The notes below the pieces were generated by a model. The model saw nothing but the letters and a program-made list of their open reading frames with translations, made no database searches and was not told where the DNA came from. The position numbers and the translations under genes are program-made. Positions 489-34,616 of a stretch of DNA of 59,375 nt are shown here, in pieces. Numbering within the stretch: position 1 is the stretch's first letter; the number at the start of each line of letters is the position of its first letter. The stretch is from the NCBI GenBank assembly GCA_021373175.1, contig JAJFTE010000025.1, positions 1 to 59,375 on the forward strand, given 5' to 3'. The stretch comes from Actinomycetes bacterium (GTDB taxonomy: Bacteria; Actinomycetota; Coriobacteriia; Anaerosomatales; Anaerosomataceae).

Positions 489-1478
489 CTACCGTACCTC
501 CGGATAGAGGTAGCACGACACGAAATGCCCGGGCGACAGCTCTACAAGCTCAGGCATCTCAGTCTCGCACGCGCACCCGATGCAGCCGGTCCTCGCATAA
601 CACCGGCTCGCGAACCGGCACCCTGGCGGCGGATCGATGGGGCTGGAGACATCGCCCTCAAGCAGGATCCGCTCCCTGCGATACGCGGGGTTCGTGACCG
701 GGATCGCCGAGAGCAGCGCCTTCGTGTACGGGTGAAGCGGGTTGTTGTAGAGCTCGCGTTTTGGCGCCAACTCCACCAGGCGGCCCAGGTACATCACGCC
801 CACCCGGTCGCTGATGTGCTTGACCACGTTCAGTCCATGGGCGATGAACAGGTACGTCAGACCGAACTCGTCAGAGAGCTCGGAGAGCAGGTTGAGCACC
901 TGCGCCTGAATCGACACGTCGAGCGCCGAGACCGGCTCGTCGCACACGATGAGCTTCGGCTCCATGGCGAGCGCCCGGGCGATGCTCACCCTCTGGCGCT
1001 GTCCGCCGGAGAACTCGTGTGCGAAGCGGTTCCGGTACGTCGCCGAGAGCCCGACGGCATTGAGCAGGTAGCCAACACGGTCGTCGACCTTGTTGGCCGC
1101 CAGTAGATGGTTGATGCGGATCGGCTCGGAGATGATGTCGCCCACCGTCATGCGCGGGTTGAGCGACCCGTACGGGTCCTGGAAGATGAGTTGGATGTTC
1201 CTGCACTGGGAGCGACGTTCGCGCGCCGACATCTGCGCCAGGTCCTTGCCCTCGTACCAGATCTCGCCGGCGGTCGGCCTGTACAGGTTCACCAGCATCT
1301 TGCCGACGGTCGTCTTGCCGCACCCGGACTCCCCCACAAGTCCGAGCGCTTCGCCCGGGAAGATCTCGAACGACAGGTCGTCGACCGCCTTGAGCACGGA
1401 CGTCGTCTGGCCGAGAAGGTTCTTTTCCACCGTGAAGAACTTCGAGAGGTGCTTGACCTGGAGTAGCGGCTCGGTCAC
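489..1478 (-). CDS. oligopeptide/dipeptide ABC transporter ATP-binding protein (OppF/DppF type)
   Basis: Second ATPase of a peptide importer and last gene of a five-gene operon. The 329-residue protein has Walker [10 protein letters not shown], signature FSGGQRQR, Walker [13 protein letters not shown] and a switch His in FIAHGLNVV. The C terminus carries the oligopeptide-transporter extension with a cysteine-rich stretch ([13 protein letters not shown] then CAC), which in this family can hold an Fe-S cluster. Length and motif spacing are normal. Its start overlaps the end of the OppD-type gene by 4 bp, so the two are translationally coupled. The substrate could be di/oligopeptides or another small ligand; the sequence does not decide. 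Confidence 0.93.
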
Positions 1479-2515: not shown

Positions 2516-2527
2516 GGTCGTCGGCTC

Positions 2528-3514: not shown

Positions 3515-3520
3515 GTAGCG

Positions 3521-4540
3521 CTACCCCTCCTTCTTCGATGAGTACTTGATGCGGGGGTCGAGGAAGGCGTAGCCCAGATCGGCAATGAGGTTGATGGTGA
3601 CGAAGATGACCGCGACCAGGAGCACGATGCCCTGGACCACGGGAAAGTCCGATTTCAGGATGCTATCAACGGTGTACTTGCCGATCCCCGGCCACGAGAA
3701 GACGCTTTCGGTGAGCAGCGCGCCGCCGAGCAGCGCGCCGAACTGCAGGCCGATCACGGTGGTCACCGGGATGAGCGAGTTGCGCAGCGCATGCTTGCCG
3801 ATGACCTTGGTCTCGGAGATGCCCTTCGCGCGCGCCGTGCGGATGTAGTCCTGGCCGAGGGTGTCGAGCATGGACGAACGGGTCATGCGGGTGATGATCG
3901 CCATGGAGTACATGCCAAGCGTGAGCGCCGGCAGAATAAGGTGCCAGCCGGCGTCCTTGAACCCGTCCCAGTTGCCCTGGATTGCCGCGTCGATCATGTA
4001 GAACCCGGTGACGTGCGCGGGTTCCAGCATGACGTTGATGCGCCCACCGGAGGGCAGAATGTGAAGGAACCCGGCAAAGAGCATGATGAGCATGATGCCA
4101 AGCCAGAAGATAGGGATCGACACGCCGATCAAGGCGAACAGCGAGCCGGCCGCATCGAATATGGAGTTCTTCTTCACCGCCGCCATCACGCCGAGCAAGA
4201 CCCCCAGGACAGTCGCAAAGAGGATGGCGGCAACGGCGAGCTCGATCGTCGCCGGAAAACGCGCACCAATCTCGCGCGCGACGGATGACTTCGTGTAGTA
4301 CGAGGTTCCCAAATCACCTTTAAGCGCGTGTGAGATATACGTGAAGTACTGGTTGATGACCGGGGCATCGAGCCCGTTGGCGTGTCTCCACGTTGTGATT
4401 GACTCCTGCGTGGCGTGCTGACCGAGCACGATGGGCGCGGGGTCGGGCGAGAAGACCCGCATCAGGGAGAACACGATGATGGACACCCCGATCATGACCG
4501 GAATGACCATGAGTACCCTCTTGATCACATACTTGAGCAT
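3521..4540 (-). CDS. oligopeptide/dipeptide ABC transporter permease (OppB/DppB type)
   Basis: Membrane permease of the importer, 339 residues from ATG 4540. An upstream in-frame ATG at 4588 was rejected because it lies inside a strong hairpin (4573-4609) and would add 16 non-conserved residues; the chosen start gives the family-typical opening MLKYVIKRVLMVIPVMIGVS. Six membrane helices are visible, as is the cytoplasmic loop TRSSMLDTLGQDYIRTARAK that docks on the ATPases. It is the first permease after the substrate-binding protein gene and is 6 bp from the second permease, so the two are surely co-translated. Confidence 0.92.
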   Translation of the reverse strand: MLKYVIKRVLMVIPVMIGVSIIVFSLMRVFSPDPAPIVLGQHATQESITTWRHANGLDAPVINQYFTYISHALKGDLGTSYYTKSSVAREIGARFPATIELAVAAILFATVLGVLLGVMAAVKKNSIFDAAGSLFALIGVSIPIFWLGIMLIMLFAGFLHILPSGGRINVMLEPAHVTGFYMIDAAIQGNWDGFKDAGWHLILPALTLGMYSMAIITRMTRSSMLDTLGQDYIRTARAKGISETKVIGKHALRNSLIPVTTVIGLQFGALLGGALLTESVFSWPGIGKYTVDSILKSDFPVVQGIVLLVAVIFVTINLIADLGYAFLDPRIKYSSKKEG

Positions 4541-4572
4541 GCTGTGGGGCCTCTCGTGTGGTTCCCCGAACA

Positions 4573-4609
4573 TGCAGCCGGAAGTCACCGCTCGTGACTT
4601 CCGGCTGCA
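4573..4609 (-). other. perfect 16-bp hairpin between binding-protein and permease genes
   Basis: A perfect inverted repeat: arms 4573-4588 and 4594-4609 with a 5-nt loop. It lies between the stop of the substrate-binding protein gene and the start of the first permease. On the minus strand it is not followed by a T run, so it is more likely an RNA-stabilising or partial-attenuation hairpin than a classical terminator. That would give more binding protein than permease, as is common for such operons (inference). Confidence 0.7.
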
Positions 4610-4633
4610 CCGTGAGGTTCGCCAAATCTGGAG

Positions 4634-6205
4634 CTACTGCCCGACCACTGCCTTCGACAGGAACACGTTACCGGTCACGTGGTAGTTGAAGCCGGAGGCT
4701 TTGGGTCCATAGGCCGCCAGCGTCTTAGCATGCGAGATAGGCAGCCAGATCGCACGCTCGGCAACGTACTTCTCCATGGCAGCGTACTGAGCATCACGCT
4801 CGGGGCCGTTCGCTGTCTGGAGACCCTTCTTGATCATGTCGATGTAGACGGGATCCTGCCACCGGGCGATGTTCATGCTCGGGTCCTTATCGGCAAGCAG
4901 ATTGAGGAAGTTGTCAGGATCGCCGTTATCACCGATCCAGCCGTAGAAGGCGATGTCATAGTTGCCTTCCTTGACCTTGGCCTTGTAGGTGGTCCAGTCA
5001 AACGTGTCGATCGTGCACTCCACGCCGACCTTCTGCAGGTAGCCCTGGATCGCTGTCGCGAGCGCGACACCAGTGGCGGCATTGTAGGGGCGCGGGTTCG
5101 TGTAGGCGATCATGTGGATCTTCTTGATGCCCGCAGCTGCCAGACCGGCCTTCGCGGCGGCCTCATCGTATCCAACCTGCTGGACATCGGCGCTATAGCC
5201 AGGAACGAACGTCGGCAGAATCGTCGTTGCCTTCTCGGAATAGCCTTGGTAGAGGCTCTTCACAAGTTCGTCGACGTTGATGGCCTGCGAGACGGCCTTG
5301 CGAGCCGCGACGTCCTTGAACATGGCGGTCGTGGTGTTGTAGGCCATGTAGTTGACGTTCATGCCAGGGGCTTCGAACAGCTTGTCGCCGCCCTGTGTGA
5401 CCTTATCGACGACCGTGGCATCGATGCCGTCGATCATGTCGACTTCACCGTTGTTGAGCGCAAGGACGCGGGCGGAGTTGTCCGAGATAAAGCGGAAGAC
5501 GACGTTCTTCGTCTTGGCCTTCTCGCCCCAGTAGTCGTCGTTGCGCACGAGGACGACGTTCTCGCCCTTGCTCCACTTGACGAACTTGTAGGGGCCCGTG
5601 CCAACGGGGGCTTCCATCACACTGTTGTTGCCGTCGGTGAGTGCCTTGGGGCTGACCATCGGAGCGGCCAGGCTCATGGCCAGGTTCGCCAAAAACGCCG
5701 TGTTCTTCTGGTTGAGGTTGATCGTCACGGTGGACGGATCGACCACCACGACGTCTTTCACCGAGCCGAACACGAAGCCCGCATAGCCCATGTCCGCGGT
5801 GACCTTGGGCGGAAGCTGGCGGTCGATATTGAACTTCACGGCGTCGGCGTTGAAGTCGGTGCCGTCGTGGAACTTGACGCCCTGCTTCAGCTTGAAGGTG
5901 TAGCTCAAGCCGTCATCGCTGATCGTCCACGACTCCGCAAGGGCGGGCTCGACCTTCGTCGAGTCGGGGGCGTACTTCAACAGCCCCTCGTAGATGTTCA
6001 CGATGATCTTCGAGGACTCTCCATCATCCACGAGAGCCGGATCGAGACCGCGCGGGTCCGCACCCTGCGCGTACGTGAATGTGTCCTTGAAGGTTGGCGC
6101 GCTGGCGGTGGGCTTGGTCCCCGACGACGCACTACACCCTGCAAGGGCGGCGACGCACAGGGCCACAACCAGCACCAGTGCGAGCGAACGGACATTTCTC
6201 TTCAT
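4634..6205 (-). CDS. peptide ABC transporter substrate-binding lipoprotein (SBP_bac_5)
   Basis: First gene of the importer operon, 523 residues. The start at ATG 6205 is chosen over an ATG 90 bp upstream because it has a good ribosome site (AAGGGGTG) and begins a lipoprotein signal MKRNVRS... ending in the lipobox LAGC, with Cys about residue 24. The mature protein shows family 5 extracellular binding protein features: DPRGLDPALVDDGES, LAESWTISDDGLSYTFKLK, VKFHDGTDFNADAVKFN and VGTGPYKFVKWSKGE. It would sit anchored outside the membrane and hand peptides or similar ligands to the permeases. Length is typical and no damage is seen. Confidence 0.93.
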   Translation of the reverse strand: MKRNVRSLALVLVVALCVAALAGCSASSGTKPTASAPTFKDTFTYAQGADPRGLDPALVDDGESSKIIVNIYEGLLKYAPDSTKVEPALAESWTISDDGLSYTFKLKQGVKFHDGTDFNADAVKFNIDRQLPPKVTADMGYAGFVFGSVKDVVVVDPSTVTINLNQKNTAFLANLAMSLAAPMVSPKALTDGNNSVMEAPVGTGPYKFVKWSKGENVVLVRNDDYWGEKAKTKNVVFRFISDNSARVLALNNGEVDMIDGIDATVVDKVTQGGDKLFEAPGMNVNYMAYNTTTAMFKDVAARKAVSQAINVDELVKSLYQGYSEKATTILPTFVPGYSADVQQVGYDEAAAKAGLAAAGIKKIHMIAYTNPRPYNAATGVALATAIQGYLQKVGVECTIDTFDWTTYKAKVKEGNYDIAFYGWIGDNGDPDNFLNLLADKDPSMNIARWQDPVYIDMIKKGLQTANGPERDAQYAAMEKYVAERAIWLPISHAKTLAAYGPKASGFNYHVTGNVFLSKAVVGQ

Positions 6206-6313
6206 TTCCCACCCCTTCTTTACTCGTCGTGCCTTCGGTGGATCCCCCACAGCGGAGCGCCGCTCCGTTAACGTGGTTGAAAGAGTGTATCGCACCGTTG
6301 CGCCATGAAACAG

Positions 6314-6772
6314 TCACAACTGTTTTGACATGACCACCACCTCCTGGCCGAGGTATTCGCATGTTTGGGTGACGACCCATCCAAGACGCACGTAGAAGGC
6401 CGCAGCATCCGGCGTGTAGAGGTACAGGCGCCGCACCCCGAGCGCCCGGGCTTCGGACTCTGCGCGACCCACGAGCGCGGTCCCGTATCCGCGCCCACGG
6501 CAGGCAGCGACGACGTACAGGCCCGCAAGCCATGGGGTGAGTTCCCGGCGCGTCTCCATGTCGTTGGCCAGAAGCATCGCGGAGCCGCACAGCTTCGCGT
6601 CTTCCAGCGCCACGAGAGCGGTCGGAACGCCGCCGCGGCCGCACCCGGCTTGGAGGCGCGCGACGCGCTGCTCGAGCGTCTCCCCGGGGCGAAGGTAACC
6701 CCACTGCTCGAAGTGGAGACGGGCGAGCTGCGGGACGAGCGAGGTATGCTCCGAGAGATACTCGATGTGCAT
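6314..6772 (-). CDS. GNAT-family N-acetyltransferase
   Basis: A 152-residue acetyltransferase of the GNAT fold; the substrate is unknown. The start at ATG 6772 has a GGAGAG site upstream and removes an unconserved 31-residue extension. The acetyl-CoA-binding motif A is visible as VVAACRGRGYGTALVGRAES, followed by LGVRRLYLYTPDAAAFYVRLGW, typical of motif B. It lies 108 bp upstream of the ABC operon on the same strand but is probably a separate unit because the binding protein has its own leader. Confidence 0.85.
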   Translation of the reverse strand: MHIEYLSEHTSLVPQLARLHFEQWGYLRPGETLEQRVARLQAGCGRGGVPTALVALEDAKLCGSAMLLANDMETRRELTPWLAGLYVVAACRGRGYGTALVGRAESEARALGVRRLYLYTPDAAAFYVRLGWVVTQTCEYLGQEVVVMSKQL

Positions 6773-6903
6773 GAACTGCCACTCTCCGCGCCCGGCGCGA
6801 GGCCGGCGATGAAGCACAAGACGATGACCGGGACGAATGCTACGGCCTCGCTCTGGCCACCGCAAGCCACCGTGCCCGATGCGCCCCGCTCAAGACAGAA
6901 GAA

Positions 6904-6925
6904 GGCCCCGCAGACTCGCGGGGCC
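6904..6925 (-). terminator. Rho-independent terminator after the DoxX gene
   Basis: An 8-bp GC-only stem (arms 6904-6911 and 6918-6925) with a 6-nt loop. On the minus strand it is followed by a T-rich stretch (TTCTTCTGTCTT), so it should terminate the DoxX transcript 66 bp past its stop codon. Confidence 0.75.
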
Positions 6926-6990
6926 CGGATTCAGATTCGCAGCACCAGGTGCTTCGACAGGGTCGATCGCGTGAGCCAGTGCGTGTCGTT

Positions 6991-7392
6991 CTATTTGAAG
7001 AGCAGAGCATCCAGTGCGTACGCGCCCGGCCCCGTAAGGGCAACACCCACCGCCACCGCGATGATCGCCCAGTTGTACTCGGAACCACCGGCCGTGGCCA
7101 TGTAGCCATTCTTGCCGGTCACGGTGAAGACCGCCACGAGCATCGTCACCACGATGAGCGCGGACGCGAGCGGGGTGAGCAGGCCGAGCGCGAAGAACAA
7201 TCCGCCAGCCGTCTCACCGAGGCCGGCCAGCGTCGCCATCGTCGTGCCGGGCTTGATGCCGAGCGAGTCGAAGAACGCACCGGTTCCGGCGATGCCGTTG
7301 CCGCCGAACCAGCTGAAGAGCTTCTGCGTTCCGTGAACGGCGAATGTGAGGCCAAAGACGAGGCGAATGACGAGCAATCCAAGTGAAACCAT
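6991..7392 (-). CDS. DoxX family membrane protein
   Basis: A 133-residue protein with four hydrophobic segments and the DoxX signature near the N terminus (GLTFAVHGTQKLFSWFGG). DoxX proteins are small integral membrane proteins associated with quinol or thiol redox chemistry; the exact role here is unknown. It has its own start with an upstream AGGAGG-like site and a terminator downstream. The next gene upstream on the same strand encodes a Rieske protein, which hints at a shared redox role, though a hairpin lies between them. Confidence 0.88.
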   Translation of the reverse strand: MVSLGLLVIRLVFGLTFAVHGTQKLFSWFGGNGIAGTGAFFDSLGIKPGTTMATLAGLGETAGGLFFALGLLTPLASALIVVTMLVAVFTVTGKNGYMATAGGSEYNWAIIAVAVGVALTGPGAYALDALLFK

Positions 7393-7490
7393 CGCGTATT
7401 CCCTCCTAAGAATCCATACCTATTCGGTAAGGATTAGAAGCACGCCGCGTGCCAACCGGTCGGCTTCGACGATGCGTTCGCGCCCAAGCG

Positions 7491-7524
7491 GGCGGAGGCC
7501 CCACGGGCTCGCGGGGCCTCCGCC
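7491..7524 (-). terminator. strong hairpin between Rieske and DoxX genes
   Basis: A 12-bp GC-rich stem (arms 7491-7502 and 7513-7524) with a 10-nt loop, placed just after the stop codon of the Rieske gene. There is no clear T run on either side, so termination is likely but not proven. Confidence 0.5.
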
Positions 7525-7542
7525 GTGCTCATCGGGATCGGG

Positions 7543-7920
7543 TCACTCTGGCACGGCGCCCTGGGGCTTCTGCGGGCCGACGAGGACCTTGCCGTCCTCG
7601 ACCGTGCTTTCGTATGCGCGCAACGGACGGGGGTGCTGAACGAGTTCGGCGATCGTGAGCACCGGACCCTTCCAGTCGGTCCACCGCAGGCAGCTGCCAT
7701 CGGTCACGTCGAACTGAGAGTGATGCGACGGGCACGTCACAACGGTGCCGTTGAGCTCGCCCTCGGCAAGAGGGCCGCCGATGTGCGGGCAACGAGCGTC
7801 GGTGACGAAGTAGTCGTCGCCGACACGCGACACCAGCAGCTTGTGACCGTCCAGCTCGACCGCGCGCATCGTTCCTGGTTCGAAGCTCTCGGTCGTCGTG
7901 ACCTCGATGAATCCTTCCAT
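7543..7920 (-). CDS. Rieske [2Fe-2S] domain protein
   Basis: A 125-residue soluble Rieske ferredoxin-like protein. Both cluster motifs are present: CPHIGG and CPSHHSQFDVTDG, i.e. C-x-H and C-x2-H. ATG 7920 is chosen as start because the GAAGAGG site sits 8 bp upstream; a GTG three codons earlier is too close to that site. No membrane anchor is seen, so it probably acts as a small electron carrier or as a subunit of an oxygenase or oxidoreductase. No oxygenase subunit is adjacent; DoxX lies downstream. Confidence 0.9.
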   Translation of the reverse strand: MEGFIEVTTTESFEPGTMRAVELDGHKLLVSRVGDDYFVTDARCPHIGGPLAEGELNGTVVTCPSHHSQFDVTDGSCLRWTDWKGPVLTIAELVQHPRPLRAYESTVEDGKVLVGPQKPQGAVPE

Positions 7921-8005
7921 GATGTACACCTCTTCTCGAGCGGTTCGACAGACGAGGTATTCCCCAAACGCGTCGATGGGAGTCGCGGTGGGTGTGAGCG
8001 CGAGG

Positions 8006-8197
8006 CTAGTCGTTCAGCATACCAGCAAGGTGCTCCGCCACGTCGCCGGTGAAGGCAACGCACTGGTCGACATGCGCGGGTGATCCGACGAGTCCGAGCA
8101 CCATCACGCCGCCAGACAGGGCTCCGCAGGTACAACCGCCCGTCCCAATCCCGACCGGGAATCCGGAGGCGAGCTTGATCGCCTCCGGAGGCAGCGG
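8006..8197 (-). pseudogene. C-terminal remnant of a C_GCAxxG_C_C redox protein
   Basis: A 63-codon open stretch between in-frame stops at 8198-8200 and 8006-8008, without a start at its 5' end. It encodes PPEAIKLASGFPVGIGTG, then GCTCGALSGGVMVLGLVGS, close to the C-terminal half of the putative redox-active C_GCAxxG_C_C family (PF09719). The expected N-terminal half with its first cysteine is absent from all frames upstream to 8282. I read it as a decayed gene. The rest of the 7930-8282 gap shows nothing else I can support. Confidence 0.55.
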
Positions 8198-8282
8198 CTA
8201 CCAGCCACCGATCTCGCGGGTCGACTGACAACAACGTCCGTGGGAACTACAGCTAGGTAACAGGGGGACAGGCGCCCGCCAC

Positions 8283-8960
8283 CTACTGATTGGTCACCAG
8301 ATTCGCGACGAGGATGTACCGGTTCGGCGCACTGCCGACGTAGTTGAAGGGATAGCAGGTGGTCACCGTCAGGACGGCATGGTCGGCAGGCACGATGACC
8401 GTCTTGTCATCCTTGTCGACGATCCTGGTCCGAACGATCTGGTAGGTGAAGCTGCCAGCCGAGGTTTCTACAACCAGCTGGTCGCCCACCTTCAGCTTGC
8501 CGAGCCCCGTAAAGACCGTGTCGCGATGGCCGGACAGGACGCAGTTGTCCCGCACCCCCGGGAGAACGCTCTGCGTGAAATGCCCCACGCCCCTCTTGAG
8601 CTCCTTCGCACCAGTACCTTCGATGATGGGGAGCGTCTGCTTCAAAGCCGGGATCGTCAGGCTCCCGACGGTGTCACCGACGGCAGGGTACTCGCGATAG
8701 ACAACCTCGTCAGAATCAGGGTTCTGGGATGGAGCGTCCGATCCTGGCAGGGCGACGCCGTCCTCGGCCGTCGTGGCCTGCCCCGTGGCCGACGCGGTCT
8801 CACTCGAGGCAGGACTCTGGTAGGCGTTGATGGGCTCGCCGGACGGTGCCCCGATGTTCATCGAAGCCCACCACACCACGCCAAATCCCAGCGCCAGCGC
8901 TCCCAAGGACAAGCCGACGGCAAGGGAGCGCCTGCCCCGCGACCATTTCTCCTTAAGCAT
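8283..8960 (-). CDS. class D-like sortase
   Basis: A 225-residue membrane-anchored transpeptidase. A basic start and one hydrophobic segment (about residues 13-33) give a type II membrane topology, then a Ser/Thr-rich linker and the catalytic domain from about residue 90. The triad is complete: His145 in LSGHRDT, Cys202 in TVTTCYPF, Arg214 in APNRYIL. The TCYPF context is typical of class D. The start overlaps by 8 bp the end of a gene whose product ends in an IPKTA-type sorting signal, so this is probably its dedicated sortase. Confidence 0.92.
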   Translation of the reverse strand: MLKEKWSRGRRSLAVGLSLGALALGFGVVWWASMNIGAPSGEPINAYQSPASSETASATGQATTAEDGVALPGSDAPSQNPDSDEVVYREYPAVGDTVGSLTIPALKQTLPIIEGTGAKELKRGVGHFTQSVLPGVRDNCVLSGHRDTVFTGLGKLKVGDQLVVETSAGSFTYQIVRTRIVDKDDKTVIVPADHAVLTVTTCYPFNYVGSAPNRYILVANLVTNQ

Positions 8961-10116
8961 GGATCCTTCTGGTCGTTCTCCAGTAACCCATGGCTCCCAG
9001 GAGCATCAGGGCAATGCCTGCGACCAGGGCGTTGTACCAGGGCGTGGCTGTCTTCGGGATCTGCCCGCCCGTCACGGTGCTCACAGCGACACGAACGGAC
9101 GCGGTATCGGTGATAGCCGTCTCGCCTGACATGGCCATGGCGGTGGCGATGTTCGTCGTGGTTGCGGTCAGTCGCGTCGTGCCGGTGTAGACCCAGGTCT
9201 CGCCGGATTGAAGCAAGCCGTCAGTGTTGGCGTCACCGGAGGCATACGTCACGGGACTAAGCTTGTTGTCGGTGACAACCACATCGCTGAGCGGGTTCGT
9301 GCCCGGGTTGGTGACCCGGTAGGTGTACGTGACCGAGCCCGGTCCAGACGTCAATGCCGTTGGGCTCGCCGTCTTCGTGATCTGGATGCCCGGGACCGTC
9401 TGCGCGGCACACAGCCCGTTTGTGATGGTGTTGGTATCGAGCGTGACCTCGCCGTTGCGTGCCAGTAGCTGTCCTTGGATCGTCGCCCCGGTCTGTGCCG
9501 CAATGGACGTCAGTGCGAAGATATGTCCCGCGAAATGGGAGTTCGTGCCCAAAGTCGCCGAACTTCCGACCTTCCAAAAGACTCTGCAGAACCGCGCTCC
9601 GTTGATGAGATCGACGTTACTGGCTGATGCCGTGATCAACGTGGAGTCGGTCTTGAAGATAAAGACGCCGTCGGGGTCGCCCTGGGCGTCAAGTGTGAGC
9701 GTTCCCGTAATCTGGAACGTGCCACTTTCTGAAGCGTACACGCCGGGGTTCAGGGTGGCCCCACCAAGCTCGGTGGGGATGATCGTGACGGGCGTCCTTC
9801 CGGCAGCGTCGTCGTATGCGGTGACCAGATCGTCCTTAGCAACACCGGCGACCGCATCGTTGATATGCACCGTGCCATTCACGGTGGCGCTCGCCTGCCC
9901 GGTGAACGCGGTACCTGGAAACAGTCCGACGTCTCCGTTGATCGTGGTCGGCCCGGTGTTGGTGATCGTCTCGCCGGCCAAGACCGCGAAACTGGCGGTG
10001 GACCCGAGGTTCACCGTCGGCTCAGCGGCCATGGTCCTCGTCGGCACTGCCATCATGACCACCAGAATCAGCGTCAGCATCAGCGATACGAATCGTACCT
10101 TCTTGAGGGTCTTCAT
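8953..10116 (-). CDS. surface protein: ice-binding-like DUF3494 domain, DUF11-type repeat, sorting signal
   Basis: A 387-residue exported protein. ATG 10116 follows a GGGGAGG site and starts a signal peptide (MKTLKKVRFVSLML...) cut near TMAAEP. Residues about 32-235 match the DUF3494 ice-binding-like beta-helix family (NLGSTASFAVLAGETITNTG, TTINGDVGLFPGTAF, FQITGTLTLDAQGDP). Residues about 245-340 look like a DUF11/conserved-repeat domain (ITKTASPTALTSGPGSVTY). The C terminus is a sorting signal: IPKTA at about 353, a hydrophobic helix, then RTTRRIHA. It would be wall-linked by the adjacent sortase. DUF3494 proteins bind ice or act as adhesins; which applies here cannot be told. Confidence 0.88.
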   Translation of the reverse strand: MKTLKKVRFVSLMLTLILVVMMAVPTRTMAAEPTVNLGSTASFAVLAGETITNTGPTTINGDVGLFPGTAFTGQASATVNGTVHINDAVAGVAKDDLVTAYDDAAGRTPVTIIPTELGGATLNPGVYASESGTFQITGTLTLDAQGDPDGVFIFKTDSTLITASASNVDLINGARFCRVFWKVGSSATLGTNSHFAGHIFALTSIAAQTGATIQGQLLARNGEVTLDTNTITNGLCAAQTVPGIQITKTASPTALTSGPGSVTYTYRVTNPGTNPLSDVVVTDNKLSPVTYASGDANTDGLLQSGETWVYTGTTRLTATTTNIATAMAMSGETAITDTASVRVAVSTVTGGQIPKTATPWYNALVAGIALMLLGAMGYWRTTRRIHA

Positions 10117-10242
10117 CGTTGTATCCAACCTCCCCACTCCACTCGCTCTTCGTGGTCCACGTACCCATGAACGACGCCGAGCCTGCGTCAGACAACGCGT
10201 TGCGAACCAGCCCCGCGCCGCCATCAGCGCGACCTGCTCCCC

Positions 10243-10383
10243 TTAACGGCCCCGCGTGAACAGGTTATACAGCAGAACGATAAGTGCGATCACCAGCAAG
10301 ATGTGAATCAGACCACCGCCGATGTGGAAGCTGAAGCCAAGAAGCCAGAGAATCACGAGAATGACGAAGATGGACCACAGCAT
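10243..10383 (-). CDS. 46-residue membrane protein, lmo0937 family
   Basis: A short gene with a clear site (AAGGGAG) before ATG 10383. The product is two hydrophobic stretches around a glycine turn (LLGFSFHIGGGLIHILLVIA) and ends NLFTRGR. This pattern matches the lmo0937-family small membrane proteins, often stress-induced and of unknown function. It ends 127 bp upstream of the surface-protein gene on the same strand. Confidence 0.8.
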   Translation of the reverse strand: MLWSIFVILVILWLLGFSFHIGGGLIHILLVIALIVLLYNLFTRGR

Positions 10384-10738
10384 GGTGCTCTCCCTTGAAC
10401 AGAGGCGCCCGTTTGTCGCTGTACGTGGTGTAGCTTCCCAAGCGGCGCATGCCTCTCACACGCGCCGGGTGAAGGCCACGGGCAGCACCTCCTGATCGAG
10501 TTGCCCAATCTCGCGGTCCAGCCCTCGTGAGGTTGTTGGATCAGACTCTGAGCCAGCCCACGACAGGGAAGCTCGAGAACGCGGTGAGGTCGGGTGCCAC
10601 CTCCTGGAGCTTGGCCGTGGAGCCGAGCGACCGCGACGGTCGAAGCGGCGCGATGGCCCGGTCGGCGTAGGCGTACCGACGGATCCTCAGCTCACACAAA
10701 GGGCCAGACCTCCCGGCCCGACCCTCATTTCATGTGTA
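10384..10738. other. intergenic stretch, no supported gene
   Basis: I see no convincing gene here. A short GC stem (about 10701-10719) just past the 3' end of the tRNA-Phe gene could be its terminator. A minus-strand open stretch ending about 10543 has no start or recognisable motif. Confidence 0.4.
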
Positions 10739-10814
10739 TGGTGGCCAGATACGGACTTGAACCGCCGACACGGGGATTTTCAGTCCCCTGCTCTACCACC
10801 TGAGCTACCTGGCC
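10739..10814 (-). tRNA. tRNA-Phe (GAA)
   Basis: A 76-nt cloverleaf on the minus strand. The acceptor starts GGCCAGG and pairs with the 3' strand (one G-U), the anticodon loop is CTGAAAA inside a GGGGA/TCCCC stem, and the T loop is TTCAAGT. The CCA end is encoded. It lies 59 bp downstream of the MprF-like gene. Confidence 0.97.
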
Positions 10815-10873
10815 GAAGCATGCTGAAAGACTGTAGCGAACGGCCGCCGATAATTCAAGGCGACGGCCGCCCC

Positions 10874-13564
10874 CTACACGCCCCTGCGCTTGCGCAACGC
10901 GCTTTTCACGTAGTTTTGAACGACGCCCTCGCCCGCGTCCGCGCTCAAGAGCGCATAGAACACCAGCGGCAGGTCCGACGCGCTCGGATACACGAGGTAC
11001 CTCGGCTCCCATCGTGGGTCGAATTTCTCCTTGTAGGCGTGCAGACCCTGGAAGTTGTAGAACTGGTTCACGTGGTCGTAGACGAGGCCCAGGGCCTTCT
11101 CCACTGCCGGGTCCTGCGTCTCTCTGCCCACGTCCGCAAGCGAGCTCAGCCCCAGGTTGAACGTCTGGCACCCCGGTCGCGCCGCGCACCACTCGAACAG
11201 CCGCACGAACATGAAGTCCATCGTCCCGCTTGGCGCTTCGGGCAAATGCCGCATGAGGTCGATCGTGATCTCCGGACGTTGGTACTCGCTCACGATATTC
11301 GCGAAGGCGACCACGCGCCCGTCCGCCGCGTGCACGGTCATGATCGGGCATGCCGAGATGTACTCCGGCAGGAACCAGCCGAGCGAATACCGCTTCTCGG
11401 TACCGTTCATCATCGTGAGCCATTCGTCGCTCACCTCCTGCAGTTCGCGCATGAGCGCGGCCGGGATCGGCGGCTCGTGCACCACTGCCGAGAAGCCCTC
11501 CTCCTCCAGATGCCGGATGCGATTGCGAATGTTCTTCTTCGCGCCGCCGCCCGCAAGCGAGAACGTCGCCACGTCGATGATCGCCTCGTGACCGACCTTG
11601 GTGGCCTTGAACCCCGCCGCCGCATAGGTGTCCAGCCCGTCCGGGAGCGTCTGGTAGAAGATCGGTGTCCAGTCGTTCGCCGCGCACAGCTGCTTGAAGT
11701 CCTCGACCGCAGGCCCGAAGTCATCCGGTGGGCCGATGGGATCGCCCAGCGCCAGGGCATAGCCGTTCTCGGCAGCAAACGCGATCACCGAGCCACCCGG
11801 GCTGAAGCGATACACCTTGTCCGGCAGAAGGTTCATCGCGGCAAGAGACGAACACCCCCACCGCTCCACGATCGCCGTCGCGCGTTCCCGCTCGGCGGGC
11901 GTGGAAGGGGCACGAATCAGGACCGGTCGCAGCAGCATTATGAGCGCATACCCGAAACTCACGACGCCAACGGCGTAGATGGAGTCGGCGAAGTACCTGC
12001 CGAAGCGCGTGAGCGGTTCAAGCCGTGGATCGTAGAACTGCGTGAACATGACGATGGTCTGCCTGAGCGCCGCCGAGAGGCTAAAGGTCATCACGTAGTG
12101 CCGATCGAGCAGGTAGAAGCCCACCGTCCCGTACGCAAGCGTCCCCACGATAGCGGCCGCAAGCACGCGTAGACCCTGCGTGAGCGAAGGCCCGTCAGAG
12201 CGCGCGTGGAACGCGGAGCGCTCGCTCACGAGCCAGACCAGCAGCGCTCCGGCGATGATCGCCTCCTCATAGTCGAGGCCTTTGGCGAGGTTGCTCACCA
12301 CGGAGACCGCCAGCAGCGCCACTGCCAGCATCCACGCGCTCCGTTTACGCCGCCACAGGCCGCGCGATAGAAAGATGAGCGCGAGGCCCGCGAGCGCTGC
12401 CGCGAGATGACCGTAGCGGACGTGCAGCGGCAGATACTCCTCCAGCATCACGATGCGCGCGCGAATGCCCGGCGTGACCGCCGACAGGACGTCGATCACC
12501 CCCACAAGCGCGGTTATCACCGCCGCGGCGCGAACCGCGAACGTCTCGGCGCCTTCCGAGCGACGTGCCGGCTGGAACGTGCTCACGCGACGCAGGAGCA
12601 CGAAGCCGAGCAGCAGCGGGAGCCAGAAGCTGAGGCCGCGGAACACGAGCGAGATCGCGGTCGCCTGTGGAACCGCCGCACCGAACGACGTGAGCACCAC
12701 CGCGATCGCGCCTTCCACCACGCCGATCCCCTGCGGGACGATCGACACGATCCACACGAGCACGCCCACGGCGTATGCGGCAAGCAGCGAGCCCGGCTTG
12801 TCCCAGCCAAAAGCGAAGCCCACAGCCATGAGGCCGAGCAGGTCGAGCCCGTAGCCTGCAACACCGATGACGCCCGCTTTCGCGACGCCGCGTGGCCGCT
12901 CGGCAAGCATGCTGGCCGAGGAAGTGAACTCGCCGGCGGTGCGCGCGGCCCAGTCCTCGGCGAGCGGGGACGAGCGCCTCGCGACGCGCCACAGGCCGCC
13001 CACCACGCGTGCGAAGAACTCGAGCACGCGCACGAACGCGGGCGGCCGCACGAACGCCAGGACGAGCGCGCCCGCGAAGAGCGCGATGAGCGCGAGCAGG
13101 ACGGCTGCCGCCGCGATCTCGTAGGTCTGCAGGCGTCCGACGATGCCCAGGTACACGAAGCCGACCACCATGATGACCGCGAACGACGCGAAGTCGACCA
13201 CCTGCGTGAGCACCATCGCGGCAGCCGAGCCTGCCGGCGAGTGGCCGCGTCGGACCGCGTCGTCCACCACAAGCGCGGGCCCCGCCGTCCCGCCGGTGGG
13301 CGTCACGACGTTCACGAAGATGCTGCCGAGGACCACCGGCACGAGCTCGGCGTACGGACGCCTGATGCCGACGGCCTCGAACGACGCTTTGAATGTCCAG
13401 ATGTAGAAGGCGTAGTAGGCCACCTGCAGGAGCGTCGCAACGATAAGCCATCGCGGATCGCCGCCGCGCATCACCTGCCACAGGCGCGTGATGTCGGCGG
13501 TGTGCGTCGCGACAAACCATGCGGCGGCCGCAAGCGCGATCCAAAGCAAGATGCGACGCCGCAC
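10874..13564 (-). CDS. mprF: MprF-like phosphatidylglycerol lysyltransferase / flippase
   Basis: An 896-residue membrane protein from GTG 13564, which sits 7 bp after GAGGAGG; a much longer upstream open frame antisense to the Mg2+ ATPase was rejected. The N-terminal third is a UPF0104/LPG_synthase_TM flippase-type region (VNVVTPTGGTAGPALVVDDA, GVVEGAIAVVLTSFG). More helices follow, then a C-terminal DUF2156 acyl-tRNA transferase domain (about 590-890) with SVIAFAAENGYALALGDPIG and DFMFVRLFEWCAARPG. MprF enzymes move an amino acid from tRNA to phosphatidylglycerol and flip it, lowering surface charge. The amino acid is not predictable; DUF2156 proteins can differ. Confidence 0.88.
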   Translation of the reverse strand: MRRRILLWIALAAAAWFVATHTADITRLWQVMRGGDPRWLIVATLLQVAYYAFYIWTFKASFEAVGIRRPYAELVPVVLGSIFVNVVTPTGGTAGPALVVDDAVRRGHSPAGSAAAMVLTQVVDFASFAVIMVVGFVYLGIVGRLQTYEIAAAAVLLALIALFAGALVLAFVRPPAFVRVLEFFARVVGGLWRVARRSSPLAEDWAARTAGEFTSSASMLAERPRGVAKAGVIGVAGYGLDLLGLMAVGFAFGWDKPGSLLAAYAVGVLVWIVSIVPQGIGVVEGAIAVVLTSFGAAVPQATAISLVFRGLSFWLPLLLGFVLLRRVSTFQPARRSEGAETFAVRAAAVITALVGVIDVLSAVTPGIRARIVMLEEYLPLHVRYGHLAAALAGLALIFLSRGLWRRKRSAWMLAVALLAVSVVSNLAKGLDYEEAIIAGALLVWLVSERSAFHARSDGPSLTQGLRVLAAAIVGTLAYGTVGFYLLDRHYVMTFSLSAALRQTIVMFTQFYDPRLEPLTRFGRYFADSIYAVGVVSFGYALIMLLRPVLIRAPSTPAERERATAIVERWGCSSLAAMNLLPDKVYRFSPGGSVIAFAAENGYALALGDPIGPPDDFGPAVEDFKQLCAANDWTPIFYQTLPDGLDTYAAAGFKATKVGHEAIIDVATFSLAGGGAKKNIRNRIRHLEEEGFSAVVHEPPIPAALMRELQEVSDEWLTMMNGTEKRYSLGWFLPEYISACPIMTVHAADGRVVAFANIVSEYQRPEITIDLMRHLPEAPSGTMDFMFVRLFEWCAARPGCQTFNLGLSSLADVGRETQDPAVEKALGLVYDHVNQFYNFQGLHAYKEKFDPRWEPRYLVYPSASDLPLVFYALLSADAGEGVVQNYVKSALRKRRGV

Positions 13565-13649
13565 GCGGTCCTCCTCGGCCGGTCTGCACGCACATGGTAT
13601 TCCCGAGACGCCCTTGGGGATACTGCCAGTGTCAACATGAAGGTACGCA

Positions 13650-16172
<2,523 letters not shown>

Positions 16173-26693: not shown

Positions 26694-27392
26694 CTAGTCG
26701 CCGCCTGCCTCGGCTCCGGCCGCGTCCTTCTTCACGCTGCTGGTCTGCGGTGCGAAGCCCGCAGCGTGGAGCGTCACGCTCACCGACAGCTGGTTCTGAC
26801 CCTTGTAGAAGCTGCTGTTGGGGTCAGCGCGGAAGTGCCCTGCCGCGCGGGTCGTGTCCACGTGCACATGCACCGTCGCGCCCGACTTGAGCGAGAAACC
26901 GTCAAGCGGCAGGTAGAAGCTCTGGACCTCGCCTGTCTTCGCGTCCGAGAGCGAGTAGTAGAGATCCCACGCGCTCGTGATGTCCGTGCCGCTCGTGTTC
27001 GTGACCGTGATCTCCAGGTGGTCGCCCACGGCAGCGCCGTCGGCATCGACGTGGTTCTCGGCAAGCACCGAGTCGATCTTGAAGCCCTGTATCGTCGAGG
27101 TCTCCTTGATCGGGTTGTCGGCCTGAAGCGGCTTCGGGTCGACCTTGTCGTTCTGTCCGTCACCGTCGGTGTCGGGATTCTGCGGATCAGTGCCGAGAAG
27201 CGCCTCGGCGGTATCCGGCAGGCCGTCGCCGTCGGTGTCCGTACCCGGCGCAGCCTGCGCGCCGGACTGTGCCACGGCACCTGCGGTGCTCGTCTTGGTG
27301 CTCTTCGCCCCTGTGGCCGAGGAACATCCTCCAGCGACCGCCATCGCAGCAATCGCGGCAAGCGCGACCAGCGGCAACCATCGTCTCTTCAT
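26694..27392 (-). CDS. lipoprotein with calcium-binding thrombospondin type 3-like repeats
   Basis: A 232-residue exported lipoprotein from ATG 27392, preceded by AAAGGA. The signal MKRRWLPLVALAAIAAMAVA ends in a GGC lipobox-like site. Acidic repeats follow (DTDGDGLPDTAEALLGTDP, NPDTDGDGQNDKVDP) that match Ca2+-binding thrombospondin type 3 motifs. The rest is a beta-rich domain (GDHLEITVTNTSGTDITSAW, TVHVHVDTTRAAGHF) resembling DUF4352-like immunoglobulin folds. It lies 35 bp downstream of the ABC-2 permease frame on the same strand. Confidence 0.85.
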   Translation of the reverse strand: MKRRWLPLVALAAIAAMAVAGGCSSATGAKSTKTSTAGAVAQSGAQAAPGTDTDGDGLPDTAEALLGTDPQNPDTDGDGQNDKVDPKPLQADNPIKETSTIQGFKIDSVLAENHVDADGAAVGDHLEITVTNTSGTDITSAWDLYYSLSDAKTGEVQSFYLPLDGFSLKSGATVHVHVDTTRAAGHFRADPNSSFYKGQNQLSVSVTLHAAGFAPQTSSVKKDAAGAEAGGD

Positions 27393-27427
27393 CGATTCTG
27401 TCCTTTCGGTATGTGCGTTCATTCCGG

Positions 27428-31647: not shown

Positions 31648-31995
31648 CTACTGCGCTTCGGTGGCGTCTCCAGCATCGGGAATCCCGTTGCCGTTGTTGC
31701 CGACCTCTTCGCCCTCGAACTGGTGATCGACGCCGTCCGTCTCGGCGCTGCCGCTCTTCGCTTCGGTACCCTCGACGCCCTGGGCCTCGGTCGCGTCGTC
31801 CGCGCCGTTCTGATCCTGGACGTTGTCGGTGTCAGGCGTCGTGGCCAGACTCGACTCCGCGGACGTGGCCGCCTTGACGGCCACTGGTGCTGTCGCGACC
31901 TTCGGCGCGGCAAACGCCATACCGGCAACGAGCGCACTGGTGGCCACAGCTGCCATGAGCGCTGACGCGAACGCCAGCTTGTTACGCTTCTCCAT
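31648..31995 (-). CDS. small secreted acidic protein
   Basis: A 115-residue protein from ATG 31995 with AAAGGAG 6 bp upstream. A signal peptide (MEKRNKLAFASALMAAVATS, cut near AFAAP) is followed by a low-complexity acidic domain with PDTDNVQDQNGADDATEAQ and GNNGNGIPDAGDATEAQ, which recall calcium-binding D/N-rich loops. I do not recognise a family beyond that. It has its own terminator and lies 93 bp downstream of the sigma factor gene. Confidence 0.75.
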   Translation of the reverse strand: MEKRNKLAFASALMAAVATSALVAGMAFAAPKVATAPVAVKAATSAESSLATTPDTDNVQDQNGADDATEAQGVEGTEAKSGSAETDGVDHQFEGEEVGNNGNGIPDAGDATEAQ

Positions 31996-32087: not shown

Positions 32088-33344
32088 CTAATGGCCGGTG
32101 CCGGTGTGAGAGTCGATAGTGTGCGCGCCGGTCGGCGCCGAGCCGGAGGTCATGCCGTCCGTGGTGGTCGTATGATCGCTCGCGTGGGTCGCGTCGGTCG
32201 TCGCCGTATGATGCGAACCGTCGCTAAGCTTCGGGTGGACGTCCATGTGCAGCATCACGGAGTCGTGTGCGCCGACCATCGCCTCTGCGTGCCCGCTCAT
32301 CGGCGCGCCATCGTCGCGAGCCGGGGCTGATGCCTCGCCCGAAGGCGCTCCCGACACGGTCGCCTCGCCCATCAGGCCGCTCACGAACGTCGGCAGGGGC
32401 TTTGGCGCCACGGCGCCAACAATGCTTGGCGTCACCGCGCTCAACACAAGCACCGCGCCAAGCGCAGCTCTGGCAGGTACGGACCATCCCGACAGCACCG
32501 TCCCGTCCACGTACCCCACAACCGACTGGCCGAGCGTCTGGAGCCGGGCAAGGGGACCTGCAAGCCCGGCGGTCTGCAGCCCGTGCCACAACCATGGACC
32601 GAAGCCGCCGAGGAAACGCGTGCCATGTGCGCGACGGCGTGTAGCAGCGCAGCGGGGACACACGGCGAGATGCGATTGCATGAGCTCGAGCTGACGCTCG
32701 GAAGCGCCCGAACCCATTTCCCTGTAGATGAGCTCGGTGGCCTGGCGGCACGCGAAGGGAAGGTCGGCGACCTCCGCATACGCCTGGCCGAACGCGGCTC
32801 TCGCGCGGCAGAGCAAGACGTCGACGGCGCCCGGGCGGATGTCGAACTCCTCGGCGATCTCGGCAGACGATGCGTCGTGGAACTCCCGAAGCACGAGCGC
32901 CTTCCGATCGCGGGCAGACAGGCTCCGAAGCGCGATGAACACATTCGAGGTAACATCCATCGCCAGGAACGGAGCCTCGTAGTTGTCGGCCTCCGTGGAG
33001 TCCAGCGCAGCTTCAAGGTCGACCTGATCCGGCAGCGTGCCGCGACGCCGCGTGGCGTCGATGACGACGTTGCGCGCGACCGTGAACAGCCACGCCTTCA
33101 CATTCTCGACCGCTTCGCCGCGTGCGGTGCTGACCTTGAGGAACGTCTCCTGGGTCGCGTCCTCGGCGGCATGCCGGTCCCCAAGCCGCATCAGGCAGTA
33201 GCCGTACACCGCCGAGTGGTATCGGCGATAGATCTCCTCGAAAGCACGAGCGTCACCGCCCGTGGCCCGGACGAGAACGTGCTCGTCCGAGCCGCTGGCG
33301 ATGCGCATCCTGGAGAGAATGCCGGTGTCTGCCGGGGCGCTCAC
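32088..33344 (-). CDS. ECF sigma factor fused to zf-HC2-like and transmembrane tail
   Basis: A 418-residue protein. Residues 25-95 form sigma region 2 (DARAFEEIYRRYHSAVYGYC, AAEDATQETFLK, NVKAWLFTVARN) and about 130-195 region 4 (LSARDRKALVLREFHDASSA, IAEEFDIRPGAVDVLLCRAR). Then comes an anti-sigma-like zinc motif C199...H225-x3-C229-x2-C232, one membrane helix about 291-312, and an outside tail rich in His, Thr and Asp (SDGSHHTATTDATHASDH). The start is GTG 33344, or ATG 33308. Sigma and anti-sigma functions seem combined in one chain. It is 27 bp after the His-rich protein gene. Confidence 0.85.
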   Translation of the reverse strand: MSAPADTGILSRMRIASGSDEHVLVRATGGDARAFEEIYRRYHSAVYGYCLMRLGDRHAAEDATQETFLKVSTARGEAVENVKAWLFTVARNVVIDATRRRGTLPDQVDLEAALDSTEADNYEAPFLAMDVTSNVFIALRSLSARDRKALVLREFHDASSAEIAEEFDIRPGAVDVLLCRARAAFGQAYAEVADLPFACRQATELIYREMGSGASERQLELMQSHLAVCPRCAATRRRAHGTRFLGGFGPWLWHGLQTAGLAGPLARLQTLGQSVVGYVDGTVLSGWSVPARAALGAVLVLSAVTPSIVGAVAPKPLPTFVSGLMGEATVSGAPSGEASAPARDDGAPMSGHAEAMVGAHDSVMLHMDVHPKLSDGSHHTATTDATHASDHTTTTDGMTSGSAPTGAHTIDSHTGTGH

Positions 33345-33371
33345 GAGAGCGACACGACTCCGGCGGCCGAT

Positions 33372-33767
33372 CTAGTCATTGCAGGTCCCGTCGTGATGGA
33401 CAGCAGCGGTGCTGTCGCGATGCGGAGCAGAAACCGTGCCGTGAGTCACGTCGTGATGCTGCGCGTGCACCTGCTCGTAGACTTGCGCGTGTACCTGCTC
33501 GTAGACTTGCGCGTGCACCTGCTCGCGGACGCGCTCATGCACCTGCGTGGGCGTGGCTTCGTGACCGGACGGCGCACCCGGCACGTTCGACGTCTCGACC
33601 GACGGTGTCACCTCTGTCGACCGCGTGCTCGCCTGCGACGTGTTCGCCGCGTGCGTGACGGCCGCGGAACCAGCCGGAGCCGCGACGCCCAGCGCGAACG
33701 CCGCACCACTCGCAAGTACTGCACCTGCCACCAAGCCCATTACCAGACCTGTGATACTCTGCCGCAT
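33372..33767 (-). CDS. secreted His/Gln-rich repeat protein
   Basis: A 131-residue protein from ATG 33767, with AAAGGAG 6 bp upstream. A signal sequence (MRQSITGLVMGLVAGAVLAS) leads to a Ser/Thr-rich part and then a repeat of the unit QVYEQVHA (VHERVREQVHAQVYEQVHAQ), followed by HHDVTHGTVSAPHRDS. Histidine spacing suggests metal binding (inference). It is first in an operon with the fused sigma factor, whose outer tail is similarly His-rich. Confidence 0.75.
   Translation of the reverse strand: MRQSITGLVMGLVAGAVLASGAAFALGVAAPAGSAAVTHAANTSQASTRSTEVTPSVETSNVPGAPSGHEATPTQVHERVREQVHAQVYEQVHAQVYEQVHAQHHDVTHGTVSAPHRDSTAAVHHDGTCND
33471..33542. repeat. three 24-bp tandem repeats inside the His-rich gene
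   Basis: Units at 33471-33494, 33495-33518 and 33519-33542. The first two match at 23 of 24 positions; the third is degenerate. Each unit encodes eight residues, so the frame is kept when the unit number changes. Confidence 0.8.
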
Positions 33768-33948
33768 GAGATACTCCTTTCGTGGGTTACAGGAGCTAAG
33801 ACGCAGCAAGGCATGCCACCTTACGAAACTCCTTACGGAACTCGCTCCCCGGAGCATGCGTTGCAGTTGACCCACGCTCGTCCCGTCGCCCGGCGGCACC
33901 GCGAACGCGACGAACAGCGAAGCATCCAAGCATGGCAACAGGAGCCCT

Positions 33949-34616
33949 GTGAACATTCTGGTATTTCTGACCGACCTGTTCCTGCACTTAGACGTCGTGC
34001 TCAAGGCATGGGTGGTCGCCTATCCCGGCTGGATCTATCTCATGCTGTTCGCCGTCGTCTTCATGGAGACGGGTGCCGTGGTGACGCCGTTCCTGCCCGG
34101 AGACTCGCTGCTGTTCGCCTCGGGCGCGATTTCCGCGATACGCGGCGGTGGGCTCGATGTGTGGCTCTTGCTGGGGGCGATGATCGGCGCCGCCGTTCTC
34201 GGCGACACGCCCAACTACTCCATCGGTCGCACGTGGGGCAGACGCATCCTCGACTCCGGACGACTCTCCCGCGTGATAACCGCCGAACGCATCGCTCGGA
34301 CCGAGGCGTTCTTCGCGAAACACGGCGGCAAGACGGTCTCGCTGGCGCGCTTCTTCCCGTCATCAGAACGTTCGCGCCATTCCTCGCGGGAATCTCCCGG
34401 ATGAGCCGCGGCTCCTTCGCACTCTTCAACCTCGCGGGCGCTGCCGCCTGGGTCTCGCTCTTCCTGGGGGCGGGCTACTTCCTCGGCACGATCCCGTTCG
34501 TCGCCAACAACCTGGAGTACATCGTGATCGGCATCATCTCGTTCACGATCGTGCCCGCGACCTGGGAGGCGGTTCGTTCTCGGCGCGCACGACGACACAA
34601 GGCCGAGGAAGGCTAG
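33949..34616 (+). pseudogene. DedA family membrane protein, frameshifted
   Basis: Two frames together make one complete DedA (SNARE-associated/VTT) protein. Frame one starts at GTG 33949 (CAGGAG upstream) and runs through FMETGAVVTPFLPGDSLLFA, GDTPNYSIGRTWGRR to AKHGGKTVSLARFFP. Frame two continues with VIRTFAPFLAGISRMSRGSF and ends at TAG 34614-34616. The switch is at about 34359-34362, where one G seems lost between TTCCC and GTCATC. The site is the conserved RF.P..RTFAP motif. It could be a real pseudogene or a base error. DedA proteins act in lipid flipping and membrane homeostasis. Confidence 0.85.

What the first reader, a model, noticed from the sequence alone, without database searches (positions are those of the whole stretch)
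32088..33767. Sigma factor, anti-sigma-like zinc motif and membrane anchor in one chain, in an operon with a secreted His-rich protein
Sigma regions 2 and 4 are followed by a zf-HC2-like set (C199, H225, C229, C232), one helix, and a His/Thr/Asp-rich outer tail. The gene just upstream makes a secreted protein with tandem QVYEQVHA units and many His residues. A direct membrane-tethered sigma that senses metal or envelope state through its tail, perhaps together with the His-rich protein, is an appealing model.
Basis: partly seen in the sequence, partly recalled or inferred. Interest (0 to 1): 0.58.

Follow-up and report, generated by a model that had tools for sequence, protein, structure and literature searches.

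The report
Membrane-tethered sigma with secreted partner
This gene encodes a transcription switch fused to its own membrane anchor and likely brake, and comparative evidence suggests that its main job is to switch on itself and a neighbouring secreted repeat protein from one dedicated promoter.

Summary
Gene 32088-33344(-) encodes ECF sigma regions 2 and 4, a zf-HC2-like C-H-C-C set, one transmembrane helix and a His/Thr-rich tail. Gene 33372-33767(-) encodes a signal-peptide-like, His-rich protein with QVYEQVHA repeats. The four zinc-ligand residues are invariant in 13 of 13 family members. The architecture itself is known in Actinobacteria (ECF48/52/53), so it is not new.

New here: the family carries a shared ECF-type promoter, GTAAGR-N15-CG(T/A)C, before the sigma gene and/or its secreted neighbour. 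In the window it lies at 33797-33824(-), upstream of both genes. Across 16 carrier genomes, 11 of 14 strict sites lie at family loci; 16 non-carriers have none. One off-locus site, in a genome of another class, precedes a gene for the same secreted repeat protein. Sigma residue 88 (Thr/Gly) matches the varying -10 base (T/A) in 17 of 17 proteins.

Best reading: a self-inhibited, membrane-tethered sigma with a private, autoregulated regulon whose main other product is a secreted low-complexity protein. Metal sensing is not supported as a family function, because tail His content varies from 0.6 to 10.6%. Tail and partner compositions co-vary (modest statistics). Release by proteolysis is inferred.

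The parts
32088..33344 (-). Fused ECF sigma / zinc anti-sigma-like module / membrane anchor / outer tail, 418 aa (GTG start)
33039..33233 (-). Sigma region 2 (residues 38-102)
   Evidence: Pfam Sigma70_r2 E 2.2e-14
33081..33083 (-). Codon of Thr88; this residue matches the -10 base across the family (Thr with CGTC, Gly with CGAC)
   Evidence: tree; aligned to Thr71 of Mtb SigL by reading the alignment
32793..32933 (-). Sigma region 4 (residues 138-184)
   Evidence: Pfam Sigma70_r4_2 E 5.6e-12
32646..32750 (-). zf-HC2-like anti-sigma module (residues 199-233; C199, H225, C229, C232)
   Evidence: family profile's best PDB match is RsiW, E 0.023; three predicted helices 197-209, 216-228, 230-244
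32409..32465 (-). Single transmembrane segment (residues 294-312)
   Evidence: hydropathy 2.07; 16 of 16 full-length family proteins have one after the zinc module (1.68-2.17)
32091..32402 (-). His/Thr/Ser-rich outer tail, 104 aa
33372..33767 (-). Secreted His-rich repeat protein, 131 aa, first gene of the operon
   Evidence: relative in L083 885-1388 begins MRQGITGLVVGLAAGAM
33460..33546 (-). 24-bp tandem repeat encoding the QVYEQVHA units
33797..33824 (-). Predicted autoregulatory ECF promoter GTAAGG-N15-CGTCTTA; -35 at 33819-33824, -10 at 33797-33803
31648..31995 (-). Co-oriented downstream secreted acidic protein, 115 aa; no copy of the promoter in front, so probably not in the private regulon unless by read-through

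Best explanation
It is a one-protein envelope-signalling sigma factor. The ECF sigma domain is held inactive at the membrane by the fused zinc (ZAS-like) module and the transmembrane helix, with a low-complexity tail outside. On a surface signal the sigma domain is freed, most likely by regulated proteolysis. It then drives essentially one promoter in this genome, its own at 33797-33824(-), giving more sigma and the secreted His-rich repeat protein. Across the family this private regulon is the sigma gene plus a secreted low-complexity protein. Shown by comparison: architecture, conserved zinc ligands, shared promoter, narrow regulon, match of residue 88 to the -10 base. Inferred: auto-inhibition, proteolytic release, secretion, and the role of the secreted protein.
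For: Zinc ligands invariant 13 of 13. De novo dyad GTAAG-N16-CGTC in 9 of 20 and -CGAC in 8 of 20 upstream regions; the most any dyad reached in 200 shuffled sets was 4. Leave-one-out scoring found the site as best hit in 18 of 18 regions, above all 100 shuffles in each, though barely for L116 (7.8 vs 7.5). Strict motif: 14 sites in 16 carrier genomes, 11 at family loci; 0 in 16 order genomes without the fusion; reversed-pattern control 12 and 6. One off-locus site, G675:C71, lies 93 bp upstream of an 89-aa secreted QTRDRDRDQLKDGSC-repeat protein; a search of 396 phylum genomes with the L123 repeat protein found only this gene and one in G448. Residue 88: Thr in 8 of 8 with CGTC, Gly in 9 of 9 with CGAC. 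Secreted gene plus promoter at 14 of 18 loci, L117 counted through its near-identical twin L119. M50 site-2 protease present in the genome.
Against: No experiment. At 4 of 18 loci (L113, L116, L148, L149) no secreted partner with the promoter was found. In the window genome the only strict site is the one that helped define the motif. The residue-88 match rests on 4 changes on the best tree, only 1 on well-supported branches. zf-HC2 is just under its cut-off in the window protein and matches 11 of 13 relatives. The AF2 model is mediocre (mean pLDDT 71.7, pTM 0.50), its coordinates were not seen, and it cannot show inhibition. M50 proteases are in all 14 control genomes too, so presence says little. 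The relaxed motif has 25 sites against 33 for the control in 16 genomes, so single sites mean little without context.
Confidence: 0.7

Rival explanations
1. Metal sensor: the His-rich tail binds Zn, Cu or Ni outside, which frees the sigma domain; the secreted His-rich protein buffers or scavenges the same metal.
For: Window tail 10.6% His and partner 11.7% His. His content of tail and partner co-vary (rho 0.71, n=12; 0.67, n=9 non-redundant). L119 lies in an island with cupredoxins, a P-type ATPase and a cation-efflux gene, and its near-identical twin L117 shares parts of it. A cation-efflux gene lies 4.1 kb from the window operon.
Against: Most family tails and partners are His-poor (0.6-5.5% in 13 of 17 tails), while sigma, zinc module and promoter are conserved. 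Carrier neighbourhoods include ribosomal-protein, polysaccharide, NAD-ligase-like and other genes with no common metal theme (most names read by eye from the sequences).
Confidence: 0.2
2. Conformational switch without proteolysis: the sigma stays anchored and the zinc module opens on redox or zinc change, so that transcription starts at the membrane.
For: Zinc modules of soluble anti-sigmas respond to oxidation (PMC8999054 passages); the four ligands are invariant.
Against: A conserved helix and a long outer tail would be unneeded for a cytoplasmic redox signal. The one characterised fusion, IutY, is freed by Prc and RseP (PMC8999054 passages).
Confidence: 0.15
3. The secreted gene is only a co-transcribed bystander; the sigma serves other promoters that this motif does not describe.
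For: 4 of 18 loci lack a recognised partner. Partners differ in sequence and have no significant Pfam family.
Against: The partner has its own promoter copy in the loci where it lies downstream, and a repeat protein lies behind a remote copy in G675.
Confidence: 0.1

Closest known systems
ECF52, SCO4117 of Streptomyces coelicolor
   Same: Sigma domain, zinc finger, membrane segment and long outer extension in one chain; release from the membrane by proteolysis proposed; autoregulation proposed (PMC5826349 and PMC8999054, passages).
   Different: No carbohydrate-binding domain here; different promoter; SCO4117 is reported to affect many genes, here one promoter is found.
ECF48 and ECF53 (Actinobacteria)
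   Same: Predicted C-terminal fusions with zinc finger and one to two membrane helices, expected to be activated by proteolysis (PMC8999054 passages).
   Different: Sequence-group membership could not be tested; no promoter or partner data seen for them.
IutY of Pseudomonas putida (ECF243)
   Same: Sigma and membrane-bound anti-sigma in one chain, freed by Prc and RseP (PMC8999054 passages).
   Different: Belongs to an iron-starvation cell-surface signalling system for aerobactin; no such context is evident at this locus, and the FecR-type module is recalled, not tested.
CorE of Myxococcus xanthus (ECF238)
   Different: Presented there as a conformational switch; the window protein has a predicted membrane helix. 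That CorE is not membrane-bound is recalled, not checked.
RsiW / SigW
   Same: Zinc anti-sigma fold: the family profile's best PDB match is RsiW, E 0.023.
   Different: Two separate proteins there.

Membership tests
ECF (group IV) sigma factor | Regions 2 and 4 only | tested here: met
   13 of 13 relatives
ECF (group IV) sigma factor | ECF-type -35/-10 promoter upstream of its own gene | tested here: met
   -35 core is AAG rather than the usual AAC (PMC8103513 passage)
zf-HC2 / ZAS anti-sigma module | Zinc ligands C/H...H-x3-C-x2-C | tested here: met
   C199, H225, C229, C232 invariant 13 of 13
zf-HC2 / ZAS anti-sigma module | Pfam zf-HC2 over curated cut-off | tested here: inconclusive
   22.1 vs 22.2 bits; 11 of 13 relatives match at E<=0.01
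ECF52 | Outer carbohydrate-binding domain after a proline-rich stretch | tested here: not met
   no Pfam match beyond the zinc module in the window protein (apart from sub-cut-off matches within the sigma/linker part), nor listed for the family
ECF52 | Zinc finger and transmembrane segment after the sigma domain | tested here: met
ECF48 / ECF53 | Membership of the sequence group in the ECF classification | not testable with these tools
   group models not available; the classification paper is not held
Membrane-tethered sigma released by proteolysis | Cleavage frees an active sigma | not testable with these tools
   M50 protease present, which is no test
Metal-sensing sigma (CorE-like) | Conserved metal-binding residues in the extension | tested here: not met
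   zinc-module ligands conserved, but tail His are not conserved across the family

The most novel reading that the evidence does not exclude
Tail and secreted protein are a matched, co-evolving pair: the sigma's outer tail resembles the very protein that it makes the cell secrete, so the tail reports how much of that protein (or of a shared receptor or protease) is present at the surface. This would be a homeostatic loop for a surface low-complexity protein, in which the secreted protein is both output and signal. The same RDRDQLKDGSC-type proteins also sit next to a second, unfused ECF system in G025 and G448.
Probability: 0.25. Interest if true: 0.75.

Novelty: new variant of a known kind. 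Interest (0 to 1): 0.56.

Why it matters
Fused, membrane-bound sigma factors are known in Actinobacteria, but few have a known signal or regulon. Here comparison alone gives a specific promoter, a nearly private regulon, a candidate specificity residue and a secreted output protein, so the whole circuit can be tested with one reporter and one purified protein. The pair Thr88/CGTC versus Gly88/CGAC is a simple, testable rule for how ECF sigma factors read the base at promoter position '-12'. The repeat proteins tied to two unlike ECF systems point to a little-known class of surface protein.

Tried and rejected
Metal sensing as the family function: rejected because His content of tails is not conserved.

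A broad regulon: the relaxed motif gave 25 sites in 16 carrier genomes against 33 for the reversed control; 13 lie at family loci and the other 12 are no more than chance. With one mismatch the own genome has 11 sites against 15 for the control. A first search with one base too many in the spacer gave 5 sites against 16 control and was a mistake of mine.

Shared C-terminal motif of tail and partner (a protease-recognition idea): last-25-residue similarity p 0.011 with 12 pairs, but 0.07 with 9 non-redundant pairs; not claimed. Composition match: p 0.001 (12 pairs), 0.035 (9 non-redundant), 0.11 when the last 25 residues are left out; own partner is top-ranked for only 3 of 12 tails. Read as suggestive only.

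First gene calls missed the partner of L119 by calling the opposite strand; corrected. L117's partner was not translated separately and is counted through its twin.

Downstream gene 31648-31995 as regulon member: no promoter copy. DedA gene as target: no promoter copy.

Solirubrobacterales/Actinomycetes relatives L003 and L006 have the same architecture and His-containing tails but were not counted in the family.

Literature: searches found no paper on this family; the library lacks most subscription journals and the main ECF classification paper, so absence from print is not claimed.

Full report
What is there. The 418-aa protein has Sigma70_r2 (38-102), Sigma70_r4_2 (138-184) and a zf-HC2 match (199-233) at 22.1 bits, a tenth of a bit under the curated cut-off. 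One hydrophobic segment (294-312, mean hydropathy 2.07) is followed by a 104-aa tail with 11 His, 15 Thr, 12 Ser and 9 Asp. The sigma domain must be cytoplasmic to work, so a single membrane pass would put the tail outside; six Lys/Arg lie in the 61 residues before the helix and two in the 33 after it. The 131-aa protein has a signal-like N-terminus and a 24-bp repeat, 3.6 copies, coding for QVYEQVHA.

The family. A profile of the zinc-linker-helix part (A2) matches 15 of 69 genomes of the order (17 strong members and one distant one, L122) and, in a sample of 396 genomes of the class, only those same 15. In 396 genomes of the phylum it matches 4: the window's own, one strong member in another class (G675) and two weak ones. 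Distribution is patchy: of five genomes of the window's genus, two have a member. Closest is L083 (50% identity). In 13 aligned proteins C199, H225, C229 and C232 are invariant. The profile's best match among solved structures is the RsiW anti-sigma (E 0.023), and the predicted model has three helices (197-209, 216-228, 230-244) just after region 4 at pLDDT of about 70-77. Foldseek finds ECF sigmas, several solved with anti-sigmas, with the long model aligned only in part (TMq at most 0.26 among the best ranks).

The secreted neighbour. I counted 18 loci: the 17 strong order members, one of them (L146) cut at a contig start, and G675. At eight (window, L083, L112, L114, L118, L120, L123, L150) a small signal-bearing gene lies just upstream; at six (L115, L117, L119, L121, L146, L147) one lies downstream; at four (L113, L116, L148, L149) none with the promoter was found. 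L148 has a signal-bearing gene upstream but without the promoter. The partners differ: His-rich (window, L083), (Q)TRDRDQLKDGSC repeats (L114, L118, L120, L123; L150 and L112 mixed; one copy in L119), or Ser/Gly/Met-rich. None of ten scanned has a significant Pfam family.

The promoter. Upstream sequences share GTAAGR-N15-CG(T/A)C, usually followed by TTA or ATA. In an unbiased dyad count over 20 regions, GTAAG-N16-CGTC occurs in 9 and GTAAG-N16-CGAC in 8; in 200 dinucleotide-shuffled sets no dyad exceeded 4. Regions dropped from that count: the window's downstream gene and L148's upstream gene (neither has a site) and L119's sigma region (twin of L117). Leave-one-out scoring placed the site first in 18 of 18 regions with exact spacing and above every shuffle, narrowly for L116; L113 and L148 have spacing one longer. 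In the window the site is 33797-33824(-), 57 bp before the secreted gene; it is the only GTAAGG-N14-16-CGWC site in the window (0.29 expected) and scores 23.2 bits, with nothing else in the window above 12. Where the site directly precedes the sigma gene it lies 33-39 nt from the start codon in 8 of 9 regions, which would make these mRNAs leaderless or nearly so (inference).

A private regulon. The strict pattern has 14 sites in 16 carrier genomes, 11 of them at family loci, and none in 16 order genomes without the fusion; the reversed control has 12 and 6. Since the motif was learned from the family loci, those 11 are not independent. The independent part is that the other three are few, and that one (G675:C71) lies 93 bp before an 89-aa signal-bearing protein made of QTRDRDRDQLKDGSC repeats. 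G675 is in another class and carries a family member with such a protein upstream. A second (G042:C7) precedes a 70-aa signal-like ORF, the third a transposase-like ORF ('transposase-like' is my reading). A search of the phylum sample with the L123 repeat protein gave only this G675 gene and one in G448 out of 396 genomes.

A specificity residue. Of 17 sigma proteins with a site, 8 have CGTC and 9 CGAC; at position 88 all 8 have Thr and all 9 Gly. It is the only alignment column invariant within both groups and different between them. On a tree built without that column both traits need 4 changes and agree in all 4 independent pairs, but only 1 pair lies on well-supported branches, so this is not statistically secure. 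By the alignment, Thr88 corresponds to Thr71 of Mtb SigL (position counted by me), one helical turn after Trp68. In SigL Trp68 stacks on the base at '-11', and a thymidine at '-12' appears unstacked in a pocket (PMC6372665, section 8 part 1). The T/A base here is position '-12' in that scheme (CG at -14/-13). SigL itself pairs Thr with T. This fits direct recognition of the promoter by this sigma.

Tail and partner. In 12 pairs the amino-acid composition of tail and own partner match better than in permuted pairs (p 0.001), in 9 non-redundant pairs p 0.035, and without the last 25 residues p 0.11; His content correlates (rho 0.71, n=12; 0.67, n=9). In the seven upstream-partner loci alone rho is 0.92. 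Own partner is top for only 3 of 12 tails. Shared genome composition or ancestry could produce part of this. I treat it as a lead.

How it most likely works. By analogy with fused and separate membrane anti-sigmas (PMC8999054 passages), the zinc module blocks the sigma domain, the helix anchors it, the tail senses, and proteolysis frees it. The genome has M50 proteases, as all 14 control genomes do. The freed sigma raises its own level and that of the secreted protein. What the secreted protein does is unknown; a surface or wall-associated low-complexity protein is my guess.

What is known and what is new. The architecture is published for ECF48, ECF52 and ECF53 (PMC8999054 and PMC5826349 passages) and is not new. 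ECF52's carbohydrate-binding domain is absent, so I do not file it there; group membership in ECF48/53 could not be tested. The promoter, the narrow regulon, the link to secreted repeat proteins and the residue-88 match were not seen in the papers I could read or in the search listings. Verdict: a new variant of a known kind, with a testable circuit.

Noticed in passing
L216 (G025:C16) 3295-5120 and L220 (G448:C5) 1423-3378: Secreted QTQ/RDRDQLKDGSC repeat proteins lie beside a different, unfused ECF sigma followed by a membrane protein (DUF5667-like by recall); neither repeat gene has the GTAAGR promoter.
   Followed up: partly
L119 (G004:C21) 405-14375: This family member sits among cupredoxins, CcmF, a cation-efflux gene and a P-type ATPase, like a metal-resistance island; its near-identical sigma twin L117 in G014 shares parts of the neighbourhood.
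   Followed up: partly
L003 5926-7638; L006 4736-7671: Solirubrobacterales and Actinomycetes MAGs carry the same sigma-zinc-helix-tail architecture with His-containing tails; L006 has an upstream gene product ending in a run of His and Lys.
   Followed up: partly
window 33949-34616: A DedA/VTT-type gene seems split into two overlapping ORFs in different frames (33949-34404 and 34401-34616), suggesting a frameshift or a sequence error.
   Followed up: no
window 26694-27422: A 242-aa protein with an N-terminus that looks lipoprotein-like to me, carrying a bacterial TSP3 repeat.
   Followed up: no
L122 (G031:C137) 6618-7850: A more distant sigma / zinc / transmembrane fusion in a genome that also has a family member, directly downstream of a sortase-like gene (label by eye).
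   Followed up: no
L113, L116, L117, L119, L148, L115, L121, L147 sigma starts: The promoter lies only 33-39 nt upstream of the sigma start codon, so these sigma mRNAs may be leaderless.
   Followed up: partly
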